From NCBI RefSeq assembly GCF_002797735.1, contig NZ_PGFG01000001.1, forward strand, positions 2,584,001-2,648,000: a DNA stretch of 64,000 nucleotides, read 5' to 3'. Each line of letters opens with the position of its first letter. The first letter of the stretch is position 1. Of this stretch, positions 25,773 to 32,881 are shown piece after piece. The translations under genes and the position numbers were made by a program. The notes below the pieces were generated by a model. The model was given only the letters and a program-made list of their open reading frames with translations. It searched no databases and had not been told where the DNA came from. The DNA is from Thermoflavifilum aggregans. Its GTDB lineage: Bacteria > Bacteroidota > Bacteroidia > Chitinophagales > Chitinophagaceae.

Positions 25773-26873
25773 TCACCGTGCATGCTCCAGATGATTGGGA
25801 ATACATACCTCAAAGGTGGTACCTTCACCATACACAGAGCGTACATCAATTGTGCCTCCCATACGGTTGACAGCTTCTTTGGCAATATATAATCCAATGC
25901 CTGCACCTGGCTTGTTCAAGCTTTTGGTTCGGAAAAACATTTTAAAAATGTTTTGCAAATGCTCTTGAATGATTCCGATACCATTGTCTGATACTTCAAT
26001 TACAGCCTGGCTGGGATTTACTTTTACCCGAATTGCCACCCAGGGATTTTGCTCATCAGGCTTCTGATATTTTATGGCATTGGATATCAGATTATTCAAT
26101 ACCACATTCACACGAAAGTTATCACCAATAAAAGGTACAGGTTGATCTACATCAATTTTAAATTCCACATTGAGATGCAGATGCCGGAAACTTTCAATGG
26201 TATCTTCAATTTGTTGCCTGAAGTTGATGGGTTCATATTCAATTTCCAGTCTTGAATTCTTGTAATATTCAATGATTTTTTGGATAAAATCATCCAGGCG
26301 CAGCACGCTGGTTTCAATCATCTGCATGTATCCATTCGGATCAATGACCGACTGATCCATTTTAGCCAGGTTCAGGATACCGAGCACCGACATCAACGGT
26401 GAGCGCAAATCATGGGATACACTGTAAATAAAGCGACTCAGTTCATCGTTGGTTTTTTCCAGCATCTGCATTTTTTCTCTCAGCTCCACCCGGGTTGTAT
26501 AGATTTCATACGCATTATGAATCGTATTATGCAGTTCGGCTTCATTCCAGGGTTTGCGGATATACCGGTAAATACGGCCTTCGTTCACGGCTTCAATCAG
26601 GGCTTCCATGTCCATATGTGCTGTTAGCAGCACCCGCAAAGGATCTGGATATTTTTTGCGGATATCGGCCAGGAATTCCACACCTGTCATGCCCGGCATT
26701 CGCTGGTCGGCAATCACAAGATGGATAGGCTGTTCCTGTTCAAGAATCTGGTAGGCTTCATCGAAATGGGGGGCAGTAAAAACATCATATTCACGTCGAA
26801 AGGTGGCACGAAATGCAGCCAAATTATTGACCTCGTCGTCCACATACAATATCCTGATGCGTTCTGCAGGCAT
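25773..26873 (-). CDS. Response regulator-histidine kinase hybrid (REC-HisKA-HATPase)
   Basis: A 366-residue cytoplasmic protein. An N-terminal receiver domain (about residues 5-120) has ILYVDDE, the phospho-Asp in VIADQRMPG (about 55) and the Lys in RKPWNEAEL. A short coiled coil leads to a HisKA domain with SVSHDLRSPL (about 154-163) and an HATPase domain with the N box (LNNLISNAIKY), G1 (VSDNGIGI) and G2 (GAGIGLYIAKEAV). There is no DNA-binding output, so phosphoryl groups probably pass on to another regulator. It begins 34 nt after the sensor kinase gene on the same strand and is the last gene of the GNAT/E1/sensor operon. Composition is like the core genome. Confidence 0.92.
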   Translation of the reverse strand: MPAERIRILYVDDEVNNLAAFRATFRREYDVFTAPHFDEAYQILEQEQPIHLVIADQRMPGMTGVEFLADIRKKYPDPLRVLLTAHMDMEALIEAVNEGRIYRYIRKPWNEAELHNTIHNAYEIYTTRVELREKMQMLEKTNDELSRFIYSVSHDLRSPLMSVLGILNLAKMDQSVIDPNGYMQMIETSVLRLDDFIQKIIEYYKNSRLEIEYEPINFRQQIEDTIESFRHLHLNVEFKIDVDQPVPFIGDNFRVNVVLNNLISNAIKYQKPDEQNPWVAIRVKVNPSQAVIEVSDNGIGIIQEHLQNIFKMFFRTKSLNKPGAGIGLYIAKEAVNRMGGTIDVRSVYGEGTTFEVCIPNHLEHAR

Positions 26874-26907
26874 ACACTTGGTTGTTTTAATCCCTCAGCT
26901 CCTGAGT

Positions 26908-29103
26908 CTACGCGACCGGTTTTGGGGTTGTGGGTAAAATTATAATAAATTCCGATCCCTTTCCATAGGTAGTTTCTACAAAAATTTTTCCTCCGTGTTT
27001 TTCGACAATGCTATACACGATGGGCAATCCAAGCCCAGTACCTTCGCCCACTTCCTTAGTGGTAAAGAATGGCTCAAATATTTTTTGTTTGATTTCGGGT
27101 GTCATGCCGGTTCCGGTATCGGCCACACTGATGCGGATGTGCTGCCCGTCGGGTTCCATACCTGTGGTGATGATGATTTTTTGTTTTTCATTTGCTTGTT
27201 CGCCTGACAATGGGAAGGATTTGAGCTTGCTTTTAATTGCGTGGATAGCATTGGTAAGCAAATTCATGAGCATTTGATTCACCTTGCCGGGATAACATTC
27301 TATAAGCGGCAGCTGGGCGTAATGCTTTTCGACTATCACGTTGTCAGGAATAGAGTTATTAAGCAGAATAAGGGTGGAGTCAATGCATTCGTGGATATCT
27401 GCTTTTTTGAGTTCACTTTCATCCAGGCGGCTGAAGATGCGCAATCCGCGGATGATTTCGGTCGTACGTTCCGCACCTTCTTCAATACCTTTCAGCAGAA
27501 TGCGAATTTCATCAATCAATTCAGGATAATGGATTTTCTTTTTAATTGCTTCAATTTCTTCCATGGCATGTGCGGGAAGCAAAAGCTGCAGTTGTTTTTC
27601 ATAGGCCTGGATAAGGGCTATCAGATCGAACAGATCCATCTGGAGGGGTTTCACGTTGGATTTGACGAAGTTGATGGGGTTATTGATTTCATGGGCAATG
27701 CCGGCAGTGAGTTGTCCCAGAGTAGCCATTTTTTCAGCCTGTATGAGCTGTACCTGAGCATCCTGCAGGTTTTTGAGGGTTTGAAGAAGCTCCAGGTTAG
27801 CTTTCTCCAGATCTTCGGTGCGTTTTTTCACCATGCGATCCAGGGTAATATTTTGCTGGCTGAGCACCATCCGCACCTCTTCTGATTTGGACAACATCGC
27901 CAGCTGCGCCTGTTCCTTCTCAGCTTTGTAAGTATTGATTTTATCGGCAAGGGCAAAAGAAAGTAACATTGTTTCCAAAGATGAACCGATTTCGAGAGAA
28001 TAAGAGGTAAAAATATTAAATGGTAAAACATTAAAATTTCTTAATACAAAAACAATGACAGAAGTCAAAAAAACTCCAAGGGCTAATAAAAAAAACTTAG
28101 CCGGTTTATAACCTGTAAGTGCAACTCGAATACCTATTAAGATAGCTAAAAAAGATCCAAATAAAGCTGAAGTCTGTAGAAAAAGAAAGCTTTTTAAGCG
28201 AAAATTGAGCAATAATAGGAATAAAGAGATGGTGTAGAGTGCTCCTATTAAATAAAGAATATATTTACCAGATTTAAAAGTTGATTTTAAGTTTAAAAAA
28301 TTCATAATAAATAAAATCGCTGCATATCCATTCAATATAGGCACAATAAAATCGCAATTCATAGATAAGTAACGTGAATATGGCCATATAAAAAGGTTGC
28401 CGTATCCATTTAAAGTAACTTGTGTTAACCCAACAAAGAAAATATAAATAACATAAAATAAATAGTTATCATCTAATGTAGCAATATAAATAAATAGGTT
28501 ATAAAATATCATAATAAATATAATGCCTACATAGATACCAAAAATTAGATTTCTTAAGCTAATTTGATTGAGAACACTATAATTTGAACCTACAAATATT
28601 GGTAATTGAAGTTGTTTATAACTGCGAAATCTTACGTAAAAAGTATTAAAACCACTATTAGGAAGAGAAAATAAGAAATCAGGTACGTTATATCCAGGGA
28701 CTTGTGAATCTTTAAAGTTATATTGTCCTTTTGATATTTTATGTATTAATCCGTTATTCACATAAAAAAGATCAATTGAATCGATTGTTGGATAAGCAAT
28801 ATCTAATATTAGATTCTTATCATCTGATTGATTAAGTATTGAAAACTTAATCCAATAAGTATACCCTGTAATTCCAAAATTTAGGAACCTATATGAGGAA
28901 TGAATAAAATTAATGGAAGAATCATAAATGATATCATTAATTGATAACCTTGATGAAGAATCAACAAAATAATAAATATCTTTACCTATATTAACTAAAT
29001 CTTTTGAATTATAAAACTTAATCGTATCTAATCCATCAGGAAAAGAATATAACTCATGAAATGTAAATATAAATAATATTAATATTTTAAAAAATCTAAT
29101 CAT
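26908..29103 (-). CDS. 7TMR-DISM sensor histidine kinase, compositional mosaic
   Basis: A 731-residue membrane kinase. A signal peptide/first helix (about 1-20) is followed by an extracellular 7TMR-DISMED2 sensing domain (about 25-180, including GYTYWIKFSI), a seven-helix 7TMR-DISM bundle (about 185-385), a coiled coil (about 390-455), HisKA with GIAHEINNPINFV (His near residue 468), and HATPase with the NLLTNAIHAIK N box and DTGTGM and GTGLGL glycine boxes. The DISMED2 domain is thought to bind carbohydrates or other small molecules. It overlaps the upstream E1-like gene by 4 nt (ATGA). The sensor half is strongly AT-rich while the kinase half, below about 27,950, has normal composition, suggesting a domain join by recombination. 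Confidence 0.92.
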   Translation of the reverse strand: MIRFFKILILFIFTFHELYSFPDGLDTIKFYNSKDLVNIGKDIYYFVDSSSRLSINDIIYDSSINFIHSSYRFLNFGITGYTYWIKFSILNQSDDKNLILDIAYPTIDSIDLFYVNNGLIHKISKGQYNFKDSQVPGYNVPDFLFSLPNSGFNTFYVRFRSYKQLQLPIFVGSNYSVLNQISLRNLIFGIYVGIIFIMIFYNLFIYIATLDDNYLFYVIYIFFVGLTQVTLNGYGNLFIWPYSRYLSMNCDFIVPILNGYAAILFIMNFLNLKSTFKSGKYILYLIGALYTISLFLLLLNFRLKSFLFLQTSALFGSFLAILIGIRVALTGYKPAKFFLLALGVFLTSVIVFVLRNFNVLPFNIFTSYSLEIGSSLETMLLSFALADKINTYKAEKEQAQLAMLSKSEEVRMVLSQQNITLDRMVKKRTEDLEKANLELLQTLKNLQDAQVQLIQAEKMATLGQLTAGIAHEINNPINFVKSNVKPLQMDLFDLIALIQAYEKQLQLLLPAHAMEEIEAIKKKIHYPELIDEIRILLKGIEEGAERTTEIIRGLRIFSRLDESELKKADIHECIDSTLILLNNSIPDNVIVEKHYAQLPLIECYPGKVNQMLMNLLTNAIHAIKSKLKSFPLSGEQANEKQKIIITTGMEPDGQHIRISVADTGTGMTPEIKQKIFEPFFTTKEVGEGTGLGLPIVYSIVEKHGGKIFVETTYGKGSEFIIILPTTPKPVA

Positions 29104-30227
29104 CTAACAATGGACTCAATGTCAACATAATATCTTCCTGATTTAGTAAACTCACCATTAAAGATACGCCTAACAGTATCCGTAACAATTGCACCTCCTA
29201 ACATAACAGAGGATGCTAGCTGCGGCCAAGTAGTAATTGTTTTACCAATTTGAGTTAAAGAAAATTTCATTCTTGGTGACATGTTTTCTACACCTGCAAT
29301 TGGTCCTAGAATTTTTATTTTATCTTCAATTGACAAATTTGATATCGACTTATAATCTAGATTATTAACTAACCCATGAAGTATTGGATACTGTTGATCT
29401 AAATCAAATCTTTCGATATCAACCATTCCCCTATCATTCGTATCCATAACTACTGGAATTTTATAATCCCGCGCTTTAATCCTTGAAAGAATTTTAATAT
29501 CCACACTATCACATTCTTCAATGATAACATCCAATTTCTTACCATTATCAAATATGAAATTGTCAATATTTTCTTCATTTATTCCCTCATTGTAACATTT
29601 CAACTTTATGTATGGATCTATTAAAGCTATTTCACGAGCAGCTACAATTGCTTTGGGCATTGATAAATTCTTTATACTTGTTCTAATCCTATTTAGATTA
29701 CTCAAATCAATTTTATCAAAATCAGCTAACCTCATTTCACCACAAACCCTTTCCATAGCTAATGTTATTGCCGCTGACTGTCCAACGGATAAGCCAATAA
29801 TACCAACACATTTTTTAGAAAAATTAGCCTGTTCCTCTTTAGTAATCTTATATAAATTTCTAGAAGTCCTTAATTCAAAAAACTCTTCTTCACCTAAAAT
29901 ATGAATTAATGCATTCTCCCATGGATAAAAAGCCCAAACTCCATAATTTACTTCATTTTCTTCGCCTAATAATTCCCTAATTAAAGTTTTTAGATCTTCC
30001 TTTCCTATTTTTTTATTTGGATTTCTAATGATTATTAACTCACGCAACTGGTCGATAATTTTATCATATATATTTATACATGGATATTTTTGGGGTAAAT
30101 TATTTAAGAATTCGATATCTTTCTCTGAATCAATTTTAAAAAATATAGGAGAATACGTCTCATCTATATTTCCTATGAGGTTATTTAGAACTTCAGAAAA
30201 ATCAGATAAATGAAAACAGTTAATCAT
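29100..30227 (-). CDS. E1/ThiF-like adenylating enzyme (Rv1355c-like)
   Basis: A 375-residue protein. After an N-terminal region of about 135 residues with no clear domain comes a ThiF/E1-type Rossmann adenylation fold: VGIIGLSVGQSAA (nucleotide loop, about 141-153), LADFDKIDLSNLNR (about 167-180, the D-x-D and SNLNR signature of E1 enzymes) and PKAIVAAREI. No CxxC zinc pairs and no obvious catalytic cysteine are seen. The layout resembles the ThiF part of Rv1355c-type proteins without the nitroreductase part. These enzymes adenylate a carboxylate; the substrate is unknown. It starts 4 nt after the GNAT-like gene and overlaps the sensor kinase, so the three are translated together. Strongly AT-rich. 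Confidence 0.8.
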   Translation of the reverse strand: MINCFHLSDFSEVLNNLIGNIDETYSPIFFKIDSEKDIEFLNNLPQKYPCINIYDKIIDQLRELIIIRNPNKKIGKEDLKTLIRELLGEENEVNYGVWAFYPWENALIHILGEEEFFELRTSRNLYKITKEEQANFSKKCVGIIGLSVGQSAAITLAMERVCGEMRLADFDKIDLSNLNRIRTSIKNLSMPKAIVAAREIALIDPYIKLKCYNEGINEENIDNFIFDNGKKLDVIIEECDSVDIKILSRIKARDYKIPVVMDTNDRGMVDIERFDLDQQYPILHGLVNNLDYKSISNLSIEDKIKILGPIAGVENMSPRMKFSLTQIGKTITTWPQLASSVMLGGAIVTDTVRRIFNGEFTKSGRYYVDIESIVR

Positions 30228-30231
30228 AAAA

Positions 30232-30918
30232 TCAAAAATCTAGATTATAATCAATCAATACTTTACCTATTCTTGTATTATATTCAATTGTCTGGATAGG
30301 ACTACTTGAAAGAGAAATTATAGTATTTCTAATTTCTTCTTCAGAACTTGGTAAGTTAACTAAATCTTCCACTGTCATCACTGTTGCAATCATATTTTCT
30401 TTTGGATATTTAAATTTTCCTTCATCTCCTACTGACTTTTGAATGGTAAATCCAAGTCTTAAACAATACCTTACAGTTGCAGGAGCACATAAAGCATGAA
30501 GCTTCTCAACTCCCAACATTCTTGCTATAGTAATTCCTGTCCATCCTAAGTAAAGGCTACCTACCCCATTCATTGCCATACTTTTAGAATTCCACAGGCC
30601 ACATAATTCGGCTGTCTTGAACTTCGGATTAAAAACCAAATCATAAATCTTTTGATCAGCTTTACCTACGGCATCTATTAAAGGTAGCGTTACTTTTCTA
30701 TCTACCAATTGAACTCTTGCACCGCCTAATACCTTCTTATCGGGAATAGATTCAATAAGAATAACATAAGTATTATCATGATATACCCATTCGGGTGTAT
30801 TAGAAGTTATCATACTTATGCCATATATTTCGAGTAATTTTCTATGACCCTCTATGAATCTAAAACAAGCATCCGGGTCATCAATGGCTCTGAAAGCACT
30901 AAATCTATACTTTACCAT
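30232..30918 (-). CDS. GNAT-fold acyltransferase resembling LuxI/FeeM autoinducer or N-acyl amino acid synthases
   Basis: A 228-residue cytoplasmic protein with the strand/helix order of GNAT enzymes in their LuxI/FeeM-like form. VLGGARVQLVD (about 63-73) corresponds to the conserved substrate strand, LPLIDAVG (about 78-85) follows, AELCGLWNSK (about 103-112) matches the position of the synthase E-x-S-R-F strand, and then come a long helix (GWTGITIARMLGV) and a C-terminal lobe ALCAPATVRYCLRLGF, the usual acyl-donor helix and strand. It may make a small N-acylated signal or modify an amino acid. It opens the four-gene operon, 64 nt after the SDR gene. The family call rests on pattern only; an ordinary GNAT acetyltransferase is possible. 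Confidence 0.65.
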   Translation of the reverse strand: MVKYRFSAFRAIDDPDACFRFIEGHRKLLEIYGISMITSNTPEWVYHDNTYVILIESIPDKKVLGGARVQLVDRKVTLPLIDAVGKADQKIYDLVFNPKFKTAELCGLWNSKSMAMNGVGSLYLGWTGITIARMLGVEKLHALCAPATVRYCLRLGFTIQKSVGDEGKFKYPKENMIATVMTVEDLVNLPSSEEEIRNTIISLSSSPIQTIEYNTRIGKVLIDYNLDF

Positions 30919-30982
30919 TGTGGATCAAAATAACCTGGATTAAGCTCCCTAAATTATACCTTTTTTCAAACATTTTCTTAAC

Positions 30983-31792
30983 TTATAGCAAATTCTTTTC
31001 TGATTCGGCGAATAACCTGTGCATGACCCTATCCAGCCACGCCGGAGGCATCCACCGGCTGAGCCAGTAATAAGCCGTAGACATCCAGCCGGGCGTGATG
31101 GTTTTGCGTTGCCGGAAAAGCCCATCCAATGCTACACGAGCCACATATTCCGGCCTCTCATGTGCCGAACGGAAAAGCCAGCCATTAATCTTCTGATGCA
31201 CCACCGGATCCTGTTTATGTGAAACACCGCCCGGACACAACACCGACACATAAATACCCTGTGACCTGAGCTCCGTGCGCAAAGCCCGGCTGAAAGAATA
31301 AATATATGCCTTGGTCGCAGAATACACTGCCTTGTACGGCACATGCAGAAATCCAGCAGCACTGCCTACATTTAGAATATAAGCCGGGCGATGTGCCTTT
31401 AGTTCTTCTATGAATACACGCGTGAGTTGCGTAGTAACCTGAATGTTTAACTGGATCATCTGTGTGATTTGCTCGGGTTGCAGCTCTTCAAAATGATGCC
31501 TGCCACCCAAGCCAATATTATTGATAAGCAGGCGAACAGCATAATGCTGATCCCTGCACCACTCCCATACCCGCATGACACTATCTTGCTGCAAAAAATC
31601 TATGCCCAGATAATCCGTTTTCACCCCATACTGATCCCGAATCTGTTGTGCCAATCGTGCTAAGTCATCGCCTGGCAAGGCTACCAGTAAAACAGGAAAT
31701 TTTCGCCGTGCACATTCCTCTGCCAGTGCTTTTCCTATACCTGCACTGGCACCGGTTATCAAGGCATAGCAGAGAGTTGTGTTATCATGCAT
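30983..31792 (-). CDS. Short-chain dehydrogenase/reductase
   Basis: A 269-residue NAD(P)-dependent oxidoreductase of the classical SDR family. The cofactor motif is TGASAGIGKALAEE (TGxxxGxG, about residues 14-27), with NNIG at about 92, the catalytic Ser in NVGSAAGF and the Tyr/Lys pair in YSATKAYIYSFS (YxxxK). A C-terminal region of about 60 residues with a hydrophobic/aromatic stretch resembles the DltE/YqjQ-type SDRs. Substrate is unknown. Its composition is normal, unlike the AT-rich gene that follows 64 nt downstream, so the two may not be an ancestral pair even if some read-through occurs. Confidence 0.9.
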   Translation of the reverse strand: MHDNTTLCYALITGASAGIGKALAEECARRKFPVLLVALPGDDLARLAQQIRDQYGVKTDYLGIDFLQQDSVMRVWEWCRDQHYAVRLLINNIGLGGRHHFEELQPEQITQMIQLNIQVTTQLTRVFIEELKAHRPAYILNVGSAAGFLHVPYKAVYSATKAYIYSFSRALRTELRSQGIYVSVLCPGGVSHKQDPVVHQKINGWLFRSAHERPEYVARVALDGLFRQRKTITPGWMSTAYYWLSRWMPPAWLDRVMHRLFAESEKNLL

Positions 31793-31903
31793 AAGGGGTT
31801 GTTTGTTCGAATGTAAATGAAATTTTGTCCAGATGAAGCAAGAACATGATTGTACCTAACAAGCATAAATCTTTTGCATTCACTCATGAACAATGTTAAG
31901 GCC

Positions 31904-32881
31904 TTATACACATGCTGATCGCAACCAATCAATCGTATATCGCATGCCTTCTTCCAGGCTGCGCGCATGGTAACCAAGCTCCCGGCGGGCTTTTTCGCTG
32001 CTTTTGATCCAATCATACGGAATCTTGCGTACCCATTCCGGTGTGAGCAATGGCCTGTATCCCAATTTTGCTTTTAGCCATTCAATACTGGTAATGCTAT
32101 AAATAACTGGTACCGGCAAATGAAACAAAGGATAATGAACCTGACTGAGTTTTCTTAGCAGATCAAAGAATCGGTCATAGCTGGCTGGTTCGCCGCCCAA
32201 CAGATAAGCTTCTCCTGCCCGCCCCTTTTCCATGACCAGCTGAATGCCCTGTGCTACATCTTCTACAAACACATAATCCATGGTGCCTTTTCCATTTCCC
32301 GGAATCACATGCCATTTGCCCAACAAATAATCGCGCATCATGAGGGTAGCAGAATTGCTCTCATCCACAGGGCCCGGGCCATACACCTTGGTAGGATAGG
32401 CAATCACCAGCTCAACCTGATCCTGATAGCTTCTGGCTATTTGTTCACCCATCCATTTAGAACTTTCGTATGTGGTATGCAGTTCCGGACGCAAAGGTGT
32501 TGTTTCCTGTACGGGCAATCCGTTTTTTGCAGGTGGCAGAATGCCGGCTGTGGAAACCAGGCATACTCTGCTGACATGGGTAGCGATGGCGGCCTGCATC
32601 ACATTTCTCGTGCCTTCTGCATTTACCTGAAAATAATACTGCCTGTTGCGATGCCAGGCTCTTGCATAGCCGGCCAGATGATAGGCAAATTCGCAGCCTT
32701 CCATGGCTCGTTTTACGGCGTCAGGTGAAGTGATGTCGCCTTCAAACCAACGCAGCTGCGGCGTATCAGCAGCATGAGTCTGCCGGGATAATACATGCAC
32801 CACATGATGCTGTGCCATTAATCTTTTTACCAAATACGAGCCAATGAATCCGGTACCACCGCTTACAAATATGTTTGCCAT
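31904..32881 (-). CDS. NAD-dependent epimerase/dehydratase family protein
   Basis: A 325-residue extended SDR. The Rossmann motif is FVSGGTGFIGSYLV (GxxGxxG), with HLAGYARAW, the Ser/Thr region LVSTAGILPP, and YESSKWMGEQ holding the YxxxK catalytic pair. It most resembles the dihydroflavonol-4-reductase-like/hopanoid-associated sugar epimerase subgroup that reduces or epimerises nucleotide sugars or ketones. It lies 111 nt upstream of the SDR gene on the same strand, so the two could form one transcription unit. The exact substrate cannot be told. Confidence 0.88.
   Translation of the reverse strand: MANIFVSGGTGFIGSYLVKRLMAQHHVVHVLSRQTHAADTPQLRWFEGDITSPDAVKRAMEGCEFAYHLAGYARAWHRNRQYYFQVNAEGTRNVMQAAIATHVSRVCLVSTAGILPPAKNGLPVQETTPLRPELHTTYESSKWMGEQIARSYQDQVELVIAYPTKVYGPGPVDESNSATLMMRDYLLGKWHVIPGNGKGTMDYVFVEDVAQGIQLVMEKGRAGEAYLLGGEPASYDRFFDLLRKLSQVHYPLFHLPVPVIYSITSIEWLKAKLGYRPLLTPEWVRKIPYDWIKSSEKARRELGYHARSLEEGMRYTIDWLRSACV

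What the first reader, a model, noticed from the sequence alone, without database searches (positions are those of the whole stretch)
25773..30918. Four-gene operon pairing an autoinducer-synthase-like GNAT and an E1-like enzyme with a 7TMR-DISM sensor kinase and a receiver-kinase
Seen: four minus-strand genes in order, with gaps of 4 nt, a 4-nt ATGA overlap and 34 nt. Known: LuxI/FeeM synthases are GNAT-fold enzymes that make N-acylated small signals, ThiF/E1 enzymes adenylate carboxylates, and 7TMR-DISM kinases sense extracellular ligands. Inference: the first two gene products could make or cap a small (N-acyl or peptide-like) signal that the sensor kinase detects and passes to the receiver-kinase, that is, a self-contained cell-cell or environmental signalling unit. 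There is no DNA-binding output in the operon, so the relay must reach an outside regulator.
Basis: partly seen in the sequence, partly recalled or inferred. Interest (0 to 1): 0.8.

Follow-up and report, generated by a model that had tools for sequence, protein, structure and literature searches.

The report
Bacteroidota acyl-amino-acid signalling operon
Four neighbouring genes look like a complete chemical signalling kit of a large bacterial group: two enzymes that probably build a small fatty amino-acid molecule, and a membrane sensor with a relay protein that most likely detect it.

Summary
The four-gene operon is real and its genes stay together far beyond chance: of 150 loci with the GNAT-like gene (152 examined, sets overlapping), 148 have the 7TMR-DISM kinase on the same strand, and the two misses lie at contig ends. 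P0001 models (pLDDT 92) closest to the N-acyl amino acid synthase FeeM. P0002 is the cyclase half of the Rv1355c/TrzS type, the enzyme of N-acyl oxazolone synthesis; the flavin-oxidase half is missing here. Elsewhere the ThiF slot holds ThiF-FDO, an FAD oxidase, a SAM methyltransferase or an ICMT-like methyltransferase. In the window's genus, at one syntenic locus, GNAT+ThiF+sensor-half come as two strongly diverged alleles while transmitter half and receiver-kinase stay 82-97% identical. In the 11 loci with FAD oxidase or methyltransferase the sensor half follows the tailoring enzyme rather than the lineage; over the whole set that effect is not significant. The layout resembles the Phc quorum-sensing operon. 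Best reading: a two-component signalling system whose signal is a capped N-acyl amino acid, here probably an azlactone. Product, ligand and output are inferred, not shown. My searches of the open PMC library found no earlier description.

The parts
30232..30918 (-). P0001: FeeM/LuxI-fold GNAT, predicted amino-acid N-acyltransferase (signal synthase)
   Evidence: AF2 mean pLDDT 92; best PDB fold match FeeM, then AHL synthases and GNATs; 21 invariant residues in an alignment of 49 sequences
29100..30227 (-). P0002: ThiF/E1-like adenylating cyclase of the Rv1355c/TrzS type, without the flavin oxidase half
   Evidence: NCBIfam Rv1355c family 444 bits over profile 8-339/722, cut-off 476 for the full fusion; 48% identity over 273 residues to a Rhodococcus Rv1355c-family protein; ATP-site residues invariant in 25 sequences
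26908..29103 (-). P0003: 7TMR-DISM sensor histidine kinase
   Evidence: Pfam DISMED2 40-171, 7TM 184-388, HATPase 607-726
27940..29103 (-). sensor half of P0003 (residues 1-388), part of the exchangeable AT-rich cassette
   Evidence: GC3 17% against 49% in the transmitter half; identity to congeners jumps at about this point
26908..27939 (-). transmitter half of P0003, conserved backbone
   Evidence: 82-97% identity within the genus; genus one clade, support 100
25773..26873 (-). P0004: receiver - histidine kinase without DNA-binding domain (PhcR-like architecture)
   Evidence: Pfam REC 8-118, HisKA, HATPase; 83-97% identity within the genus
27940..30930 (-). diverged AT-rich cassette: GNAT + ThiF + sensor half
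   Evidence: 0.59-0.81 nucleotide identity to congener G007 in 150-nt bins against 0.85-0.97 outside, two bins at the very end of the alignment excepted; concatenated tree rejects genus monophyly, p-AU 0.0008

Best explanation
The operon is a self-contained two-component cell-cell (or self-) signalling unit. P0001 joins an acyl group to the amino group of an amino acid. P0002 activates the carboxylate with ATP and closes it, most likely to a saturated 5(4H)-oxazolone (azlactone); no oxidase partner was found to desaturate it. The product leaves the cell or enters the membrane and is read by the ectodomain and 7TM part of P0003, whose kinase half passes phosphate to the receiver-kinase P0004 and through it to regulators outside the operon. 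Other Bacteroidota use other caps (desaturated oxazolone, FAD-oxidised, methylated) on the same core, with a matching sensor half. Shown: gene conservation, families and folds, cassette exchange, sensor-tailoring match in the rare classes. Inferred: product, ligand, phosphate route and output.
For: Neighbourhood: 148 of 150 GNAT loci have the sensor kinase, 133 the receiver-kinase, 140 a free-standing REC. In one 296-genome phylum sample 12 genomes have the GNAT; 11 have a match of 146 bits or more over the ThiF half of the Rv1355c profile, all 11 among the 12 (my bit limit; 256 of 296 have some weaker match to ThiF or nitroreductase relatives). Synthase: model nearest FeeM (Foldseek E 4e-7; VIA-align Z 16.9, rmsd 2.8 over 175), with BjaI, MesI, RpaI, LasI, TofI and EsaI among the top rows. 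Cyclase: TrzS type; TrzA+TrzS make N-acyl tryptazolones, cyclising before oxidation (PMC12856293). Cassette: at one syntenic locus in four genomes of the genus, window against G469: GNAT 33, ThiF 46, sensor 34, transmitter 87, REC-HK 90%; cassette monophyly rejected, relay parts one clade. Of 62 pairs with transmitter >=80%, 9 have sensor <45%; GNAT is 30-46% in 7 of these and 62% in one; in the other 53, GNAT median is 87% with one below 60%. Partial Mantel GNAT-sensor given transmitter and REC-HK 0.385, 0 of 1000 permutations. Sensor and chemistry: Parapedobacter indicus L207 (methyltransferase) has a transmitter 73-82% like three Parapedobacter ThiF-FDO loci but a sensor 30-32% like theirs and 36-45% like methyltransferase loci of other organisms; random quartets as good: FAD 3 of 1000, MT 1 of 1000. 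The Phc operon has the same layout (PMC8578825).
Against: No molecule, binding or output is measured. L084/L129 differ in the sensor (30%) but not in GNAT (86%), ThiF (76%) or transmitter (88%): a sensor exchange without synthase exchange. Over the whole set, tailoring class does not predict sensor similarity once transmitter and GNAT are controlled (338 of 2000; ThiF types merged 725 of 2000), nor does ThiF against ThiF-FDO (277 of 2000), while transmitter similarity does go with class (12 of 2000) and GNAT similarity with ThiF against ThiF-FDO (0 of 2000). AU tests on ThiF alone (p 0.32) and sensor alone (p 0.17) do not reject genus monophyly. The low-GC3 signature is not general. In 18 GNAT-first loci the GNAT-sensor partial correlation vanishes once ThiF is controlled (0.077, 262 of 1000), so adjacency on the DNA explains part of the co-variation. 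No free-standing receiver lies beside the operon in the window. Oxazolones were found mainly in cell pellets in print (PMC12856293, PMC10404671).
Confidence: 0.7

Rival explanations
1. The two-component pair senses another cue and simply controls a dedicated pathway for an N-acyl amino acid lipid used in the envelope, as a surfactant or as an antibiotic; the molecule is output, not input.
For: Oxazolones were found mainly in cell pellets and are tied to stress in print (PMC12856293, PMC10404671). N-acyl tyrosine derivatives of Stieleria are antimicrobial (PMC12856293 discussion). L084/L129 shows a sensor exchanged without the synthase.
Against: The sensor half tracks GNAT beyond transmitter and relay and, in the rare classes, the tailoring enzyme. 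No other neighbour family was found in more than 30 of the 150 loci (the families were not annotated).
Confidence: 0.17
2. The co-variation is a by-product of mosaic horizontal transfer of adjacent DNA: the block is exchanged because it is contiguous, with no ligand match between synthase and sensor.
For: GNAT, ThiF and sensor half are adjacent; in 18 GNAT-first loci the farther partner (GNAT) loses its link to the sensor after control for ThiF.
Against: In the window's genus the exchange stops inside the kinase gene at the sensor/transmitter joint. In L207 the sensor matches the tailoring class while GNAT does not: pair percentiles 0.25-0.68 for GNAT, 0.84-0.99 for sensor.
Confidence: 0.09
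3. The E1-like protein serves a ubiquitin-like conjugation or a thiamine/molybdopterin pathway, and the GNAT is a protein acetyltransferase.
For: It belongs to the ThiF superfamily. Neighbours were not searched for E2, JAB or sulfur-carrier genes.
Against: No ThiF or MoeB model scores above 65 bits, against cut-offs of 152 or more, while the Rv1355c model gives 444 bits. The GNAT model is nearest FeeM.
Confidence: 0.04

Closest known systems
TrzAS / TyzACB / OxzAB N-acyl oxazolone pathways (PMC12856293, PMC10404671)
   Same: Amino-acid N-acyltransferase with FeeM/BjaI-like fold near a ThiF cyclase; P0002 is 48% identical to a Rhodococcus Rv1355c-family protein; TrzA-like neighbours of such genes in Actinomycetota align collinearly with the P0001 family (hhalign prob 63%, E 7e-5 for one comparison).
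   Different: No flavin oxidase in the window; joined to a 7TMR-DISM kinase in the Bacteroidota loci examined. Neither paper's main text holds 'two-component' or (PMC12856293) 'kinase' or (PMC10404671) 'histidine kinase'.
Phc quorum sensing (phcBSRQ; PMC8578825, PMC11960443)
   Same: Operon layout synthase - histidine kinase - receiver-kinase without DNA-binding domain - receiver; small lipophilic signal with a capped carboxylate.
   Different: The signal is a fatty acid methyl ester made by a methyltransferase; phylum and synthase differ; homology of PhcS/PhcR/PhcQ to these proteins was not tested.
FeeM / LuxI-type synthases
   Same: Fold, and probable reaction (acyl transfer to an amino acid amine).
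   Different: No Pfam LuxI-family hit; Pfam FeeM matched by only 1 of 49 members.
ComQXPA and agr pherotype cassettes
   Same: Synthase and sensor half vary as a block while the rest of the kinase and the next regulator are conserved (pattern recalled; starts of the abstracts of PMC4008528 and PMC4408185 seen in a listing).
   Different: Peptide signals, Firmicutes, no shared genes (recalled).

Membership tests
N-acyl oxazolone biosynthesis (Oxz/Tyz/Trz) | ThiF-like cyclase of the TyzB/OxzB/TrzS group | tested here: met
   NCBIfam NF005901 444 bits, under the cut-off of 476 set for the full fusion; 48% identity to a Rhodococcus Rv1355c-family protein
N-acyl oxazolone biosynthesis (Oxz/Tyz/Trz) | adjacent amino-acid N-acyltransferase with FeeM-like fold | tested here: met
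   fold only; activity not tested
N-acyl oxazolone biosynthesis (Oxz/Tyz/Trz) | flavin-dependent oxidase (FDO), fused or adjacent | tested here: not met
   P0002 stops after the ThiF part; no FDO match in the window's whole genome; fused FDO in 68 of 133 distinct loci
N-acyl oxazolone biosynthesis (Oxz/Tyz/Trz) | oxazolone detected | not testable with these tools
   needs LC-MS
LuxI AHL synthases | LuxI-family sequence signature (Pfam) | tested here: not met
   no Pfam hit for P0001; 49 members match only DUF3182, Acetyltransf_1 and FeeM at E<=0.1
FeeM N-acyl amino acid synthases | fold | tested here: met
   best match in both aligners
FeeM N-acyl amino acid synthases | Pfam FeeM sequence profile | tested here: inconclusive
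   1 of 49 members, E 6.5e-4; P0001 itself none
ThiF/MoeB cofactor enzymes | equivalog score above cut-off | tested here: not met
   65 bits or less against cut-offs of 152 or more
Phc-type two-component quorum sensing | gene layout synthase-HK-receiver/HK-receiver | tested here: met
   REC-HK in 133 of 150 and a free-standing REC in 140 of 150 loci; the window itself has no free-standing REC beside the operon
Phc-type two-component quorum sensing | homology of kinase and relay to PhcS/PhcR/PhcQ | not tested
   no Phc sequence was fetched
Phc-type two-component quorum sensing | kinase responds to the operon's own product | not testable with these tools
   bench test needed

The most novel reading that the evidence does not exclude
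A quorum-sensing family not found described, spread through Bacteroidota, in which N-acyl amino acid derivatives, oxazolones foremost, are the signals. One acyl-amino-acid core is capped by interchangeable enzymes (cyclase, cyclase-oxidase, FAD oxidase, methyltransferase, ICMT-like methyltransferase) to give chemical dialects, and synthase plus sensor half move between genomes as pherotype cassettes onto a conserved phosphorelay. Oxazolones would gain a receptor and a function, and 7TMR-DISM kinases a new class of ligand.
Probability: 0.45. Interest if true: 0.93.

Novelty: new variant of a known kind. Interest (0 to 1): 0.85.

Why it matters
The physiological role of oxazolones is called a major unresolved question in PMC12856293. 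Here enzymes of that type sit beside a dedicated membrane sensor in at least 133 distinct Bacteroidota loci; one scan found 449 relatives of the GNAT, of which I saw 80. The signalling idea becomes directly testable with a candidate receptor in hand. If true, it would give a large environmental phylum a chemical language of its own, define ligands for 7TMR-DISM kinases, and offer natural synthase-sensor pairs and chimeras for engineering.

Tried and rejected
Cofactor roles for P0002 were rejected on profile scores. Hydrophobic transmembrane codons as the reason for the AT-rich block were rejected: GC3 is low too, and GNAT and ThiF share it. A general low-GC signature across loci was tested and not found: mean GC3 differs from the transmitter by -3.5 (GNAT), -0.7 (ThiF) and -0.1 (sensor) over 115 distinct loci. 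A whole-set effect of tailoring class on the sensor was not found. The P0003 model (mean pLDDT 79, pTM 0.55) listed only kinase-domain matches among the 50 PDB rows shown and says nothing on the ligand site. A Streptomyces plasmid has a ThiF relative next to an ordinary GNAT that does not match the P0001 family. A direct tblastn of P0001 against plasmids found nothing. Promoter and terminator scan: 14 promoter-like sites against a mean of 23 in shuffles, no terminator; uninformative. The first REC-HK tree was not finished; a smaller one was. The 22 outside rows were chosen after seeing which were near, with four long-branched rows left out, and the genus was named as a group after the identity tables had been seen. 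Literature searches for a prior description gave none linking ThiF or oxazolones to 7TMR-DISM kinases. Limits: open PMC papers only; of the 133 papers only 12 were listed; three searches with '7TMR-DISM' returned zero papers and I ran no control that the term is found at all; the OxzAB paper was not read.
Full report
Observation. The four ORFs exist as described. The window is bases 2,584,001-2,648,000 of a 2.84 Mb single-contig genome. Congener G007 has the contig length and gene position of Thermoflavifilum thermophilum DSM 14807, so the genus is Thermoflavifilum or very near it. Domain content is confirmed by Pfam.

The two enzymes. P0001 has no Pfam hit, no NCBIfam hit better than E 0.1 and no PDB sequence match; a profile of 49 members finds nothing in the PDB sequences better than E 0.24. 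Its AlphaFold2 model (49 sequences, mean pLDDT 92) matches best, in Foldseek and in VIA-align 2, the N-acyl amino acid synthase FeeM (E 4e-7; Z 16.9, rmsd 2.8 over 175 residues), followed by AHL synthases and some ordinary GNATs at Z 15.8 and below. P0002 scores 444 bits with NCBIfam 'Rv1355c family' over positions 8-339 of 722, under the cut-off of 476 for the whole fusion, and is 48% identical over 273 residues to a Rhodococcus Rv1355c-family protein. E1 ATP-site residues (G142, S147-G149, D169, D171, N177, N179, R180, K192, D240) are invariant in 25 sequences; their roles are recalled from ThiF/MoeB. In PMC12856293 (abstract, part of the results, discussion) and PMC10404671 (abstract, two sections, passages), Rv1356c/Rv1355c are TrzA/TrzS: TrzA N-acylates tryptophan, the ThiF part cyclises it with ATP, and a fused flavin oxidase (FDO) then desaturates it; with oxygen limited, the cyclised saturated intermediate accumulates. 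The window lacks the FDO in the gene, and a search of its genome with an FDO from another locus found none (no separate control was run, though the fusion profile matches over both halves in G111, G076 and G194). A saturated azlactone is therefore the predicted end product. TrzA-like neighbours of Rv1355c-family genes on actinobacterial plasmids align collinearly with the P0001 family (three sequences; hhalign 63%, E 7e-5 for one comparison).

Conservation. The P0001 family occurs in 12 of 296 phylum genomes and ThiF relatives at E<=1e-20 in 80 of 394 family genomes. A pattern scan of one genome for each of 84,980 species found 449 relatives, of which the best 80 were kept. I examined 152 loci: the window, 11 phylum loci, 60 family loci (of the 78 other positive genomes) and the 80 named ones; the sets overlap in places. 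150 hold the GNAT; the other two (L107, L125) end at a contig edge. On the same strand within 7 kb, 148 have the sensor kinase, 138 ThiF (82 fused to FDO) and 133 the receiver-kinase; 140 have a free-standing REC nearby. The two without the kinase lie at contig ends. Of the 17 without the receiver-kinase, 11 are flagged as near a contig end, but one of these (L181) has 5 kb of sequence after the kinase and may truly lack it, and 6 are not near an end. Phylum and named loci were picked by the GNAT, so their kinase counts are not built in: 12 of 12 and 78 of 80.

A variable tailoring slot. The 12 loci without ThiF hold, between GNAT and kinase, an FAD_binding_4 oxidase (6), a class I SAM methyltransferase (5) or an ICMT-family methyltransferase (1). 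All could act on an N-acyl amino acid; ThiF and ICMT both act on a carboxylate (family knowledge).

Cassette exchange. In four genomes of the genus (window, G007, G399, G469; a fifth, incomplete one, G519, had no ThiF match) the operon lies between the same SDR and M20 peptidase genes. The order is GNAT-ThiF in the window and G007, ThiF-GNAT in G399 and G469. Window against G469: GNAT 33, ThiF 46, sensor 34, transmitter 87, receiver-kinase 90%. Even against G007, bins outside the cassette are 0.85-0.97 identical at the DNA level, two bins at the alignment's end excepted, and bins inside are 0.59-0.81, with GC3 17-23% against 44-51% and an edge at the end of the 7TM domain. A concatenated cassette tree rejects one clade for the genus (p-AU 0.0008, 26 rows), as does GNAT alone (p 0.0035); sensor alone (0.17) and ThiF alone (0.32) do not. 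Transmitter (62 rows) and receiver-kinase (26 rows) trees hold the genus together with support 100.

Co-variation. With 62 loci (10 of 72 dropped as incomplete) and with 115 distinct loci (incomplete loci and repeated GNATs dropped), GNAT and sensor distances correlate after control for transmitter and receiver-kinase (0.25, 0 of 2000; 0.385, 0 of 1000). GNAT and transmitter, controlled for receiver-kinase and sensor, give 0.087 (24 of 1000). Among 62 close pairs, 9 have a replaced sensor; GNAT is replaced too in 7 (30-46%), intermediate in 1 (62%) and kept in 1 (L084/L129, 86%). The nine pairs are about five events; four of them are the single event in the window's genus.

Sensor and chemistry. 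Among 133 distinct loci, all 11 FAD or MT loci have sensors closer, on average, to same-class loci that are farther by transmitter than to their five nearest other-class mates. The nearest sensor neighbour is same-class in 10 of 11, against 7 of 11 for GNAT and 7 of 11 for transmitter. L207 is the clearest case: one protein whose transmitter is like that of three Parapedobacter ThiF-FDO loci (73-82%) and whose sensor is like those of methyltransferase loci elsewhere (36-45%, against 30-32% to the three); a fourth Parapedobacter locus, L189 (ThiF), is farther in both (57% and 25%) but close in GNAT (74%). The single ICMT locus has the most isolated sensor of all 133 (best 34%), though its transmitter is 73% like a ThiF-FDO locus. 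Random quartets of loci, against one representative of each of four lineages that I defined, reach the observed sensor percentiles 3 (FAD) and 1 (MT) times in 1000; for GNAT 2 and 58. Against this, class permutation over the whole set is not significant for the sensor (338 of 2000) but is for the transmitter (12 of 2000).

Mechanism. A dedicated synthase, a membrane kinase whose sensing half co-varies with it, a receiver-kinase and free-standing receivers form the layout of phcBSRQ, where the signal is a fatty acid methyl ester and PhcR is a receiver-kinase without DNA-binding domain (PMC8578825 abstract and passages). I therefore read the operon as a two-component signalling system that reads its own N-acyl amino acid product. 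No free-standing receiver lies beside the operon in the four genomes of the window's genus, and the window's genome has no close relative of the divergent receiver of other loci apart from P0004 itself (53%; next best 33%; the second, smaller receiver was not searched for). There the output must run through P0004 to other regulators.

Novelty. The parts are known; their union, the chemistry-sensor match and the cassette behaviour were not found described (searches and their limits in Tried and rejected).

Noticed in passing
   Followed up: no
L032, L035, L037: GNAT and sensor half are AT-rich in GC3 relative to the transmitter (L035: 23 and 23 against 44) while ThiF is near normal in L032 and L035: a smaller exchange unit than in the window's genus.
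   Followed up: partly
L175, L180, L182 (Olivibacter): Receiver-kinase and REC lie upstream of ThiF instead of downstream of the sensor kinase: a rearranged order.
   Followed up: no
L085:11026-13151: The sensor kinase reads as two ORFs (551 and 162 aa): broken gene or sequencing error.
   Followed up: no
L251, L252, L253 (mycobacterial plasmids) and L250 (Streptomyces plasmid): Rv1355c-family or ThiF genes beside cytochrome P450, TetR and dienelactone hydrolase genes, or beside a beta-ketoacyl-ACP synthase III, with no annotated acyltransferase next to them (the annotation is incomplete): perhaps other chemistries around the same cyclase.
   Followed up: no
L204 (titled Azovibrio restrictus MAG) and L208 (titled Bacteroides sp. 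MAG): Same gene lengths and spacing throughout the operon; the Azovibrio label is probably a misbinned Bacteroidota contig.
   Followed up: no
window 30983-32881: SDR and epimerase-like genes directly upstream on the same strand keep their place in all four genomes of the genus. I did not look for them beside the operon in other genera.
   Followed up: partly
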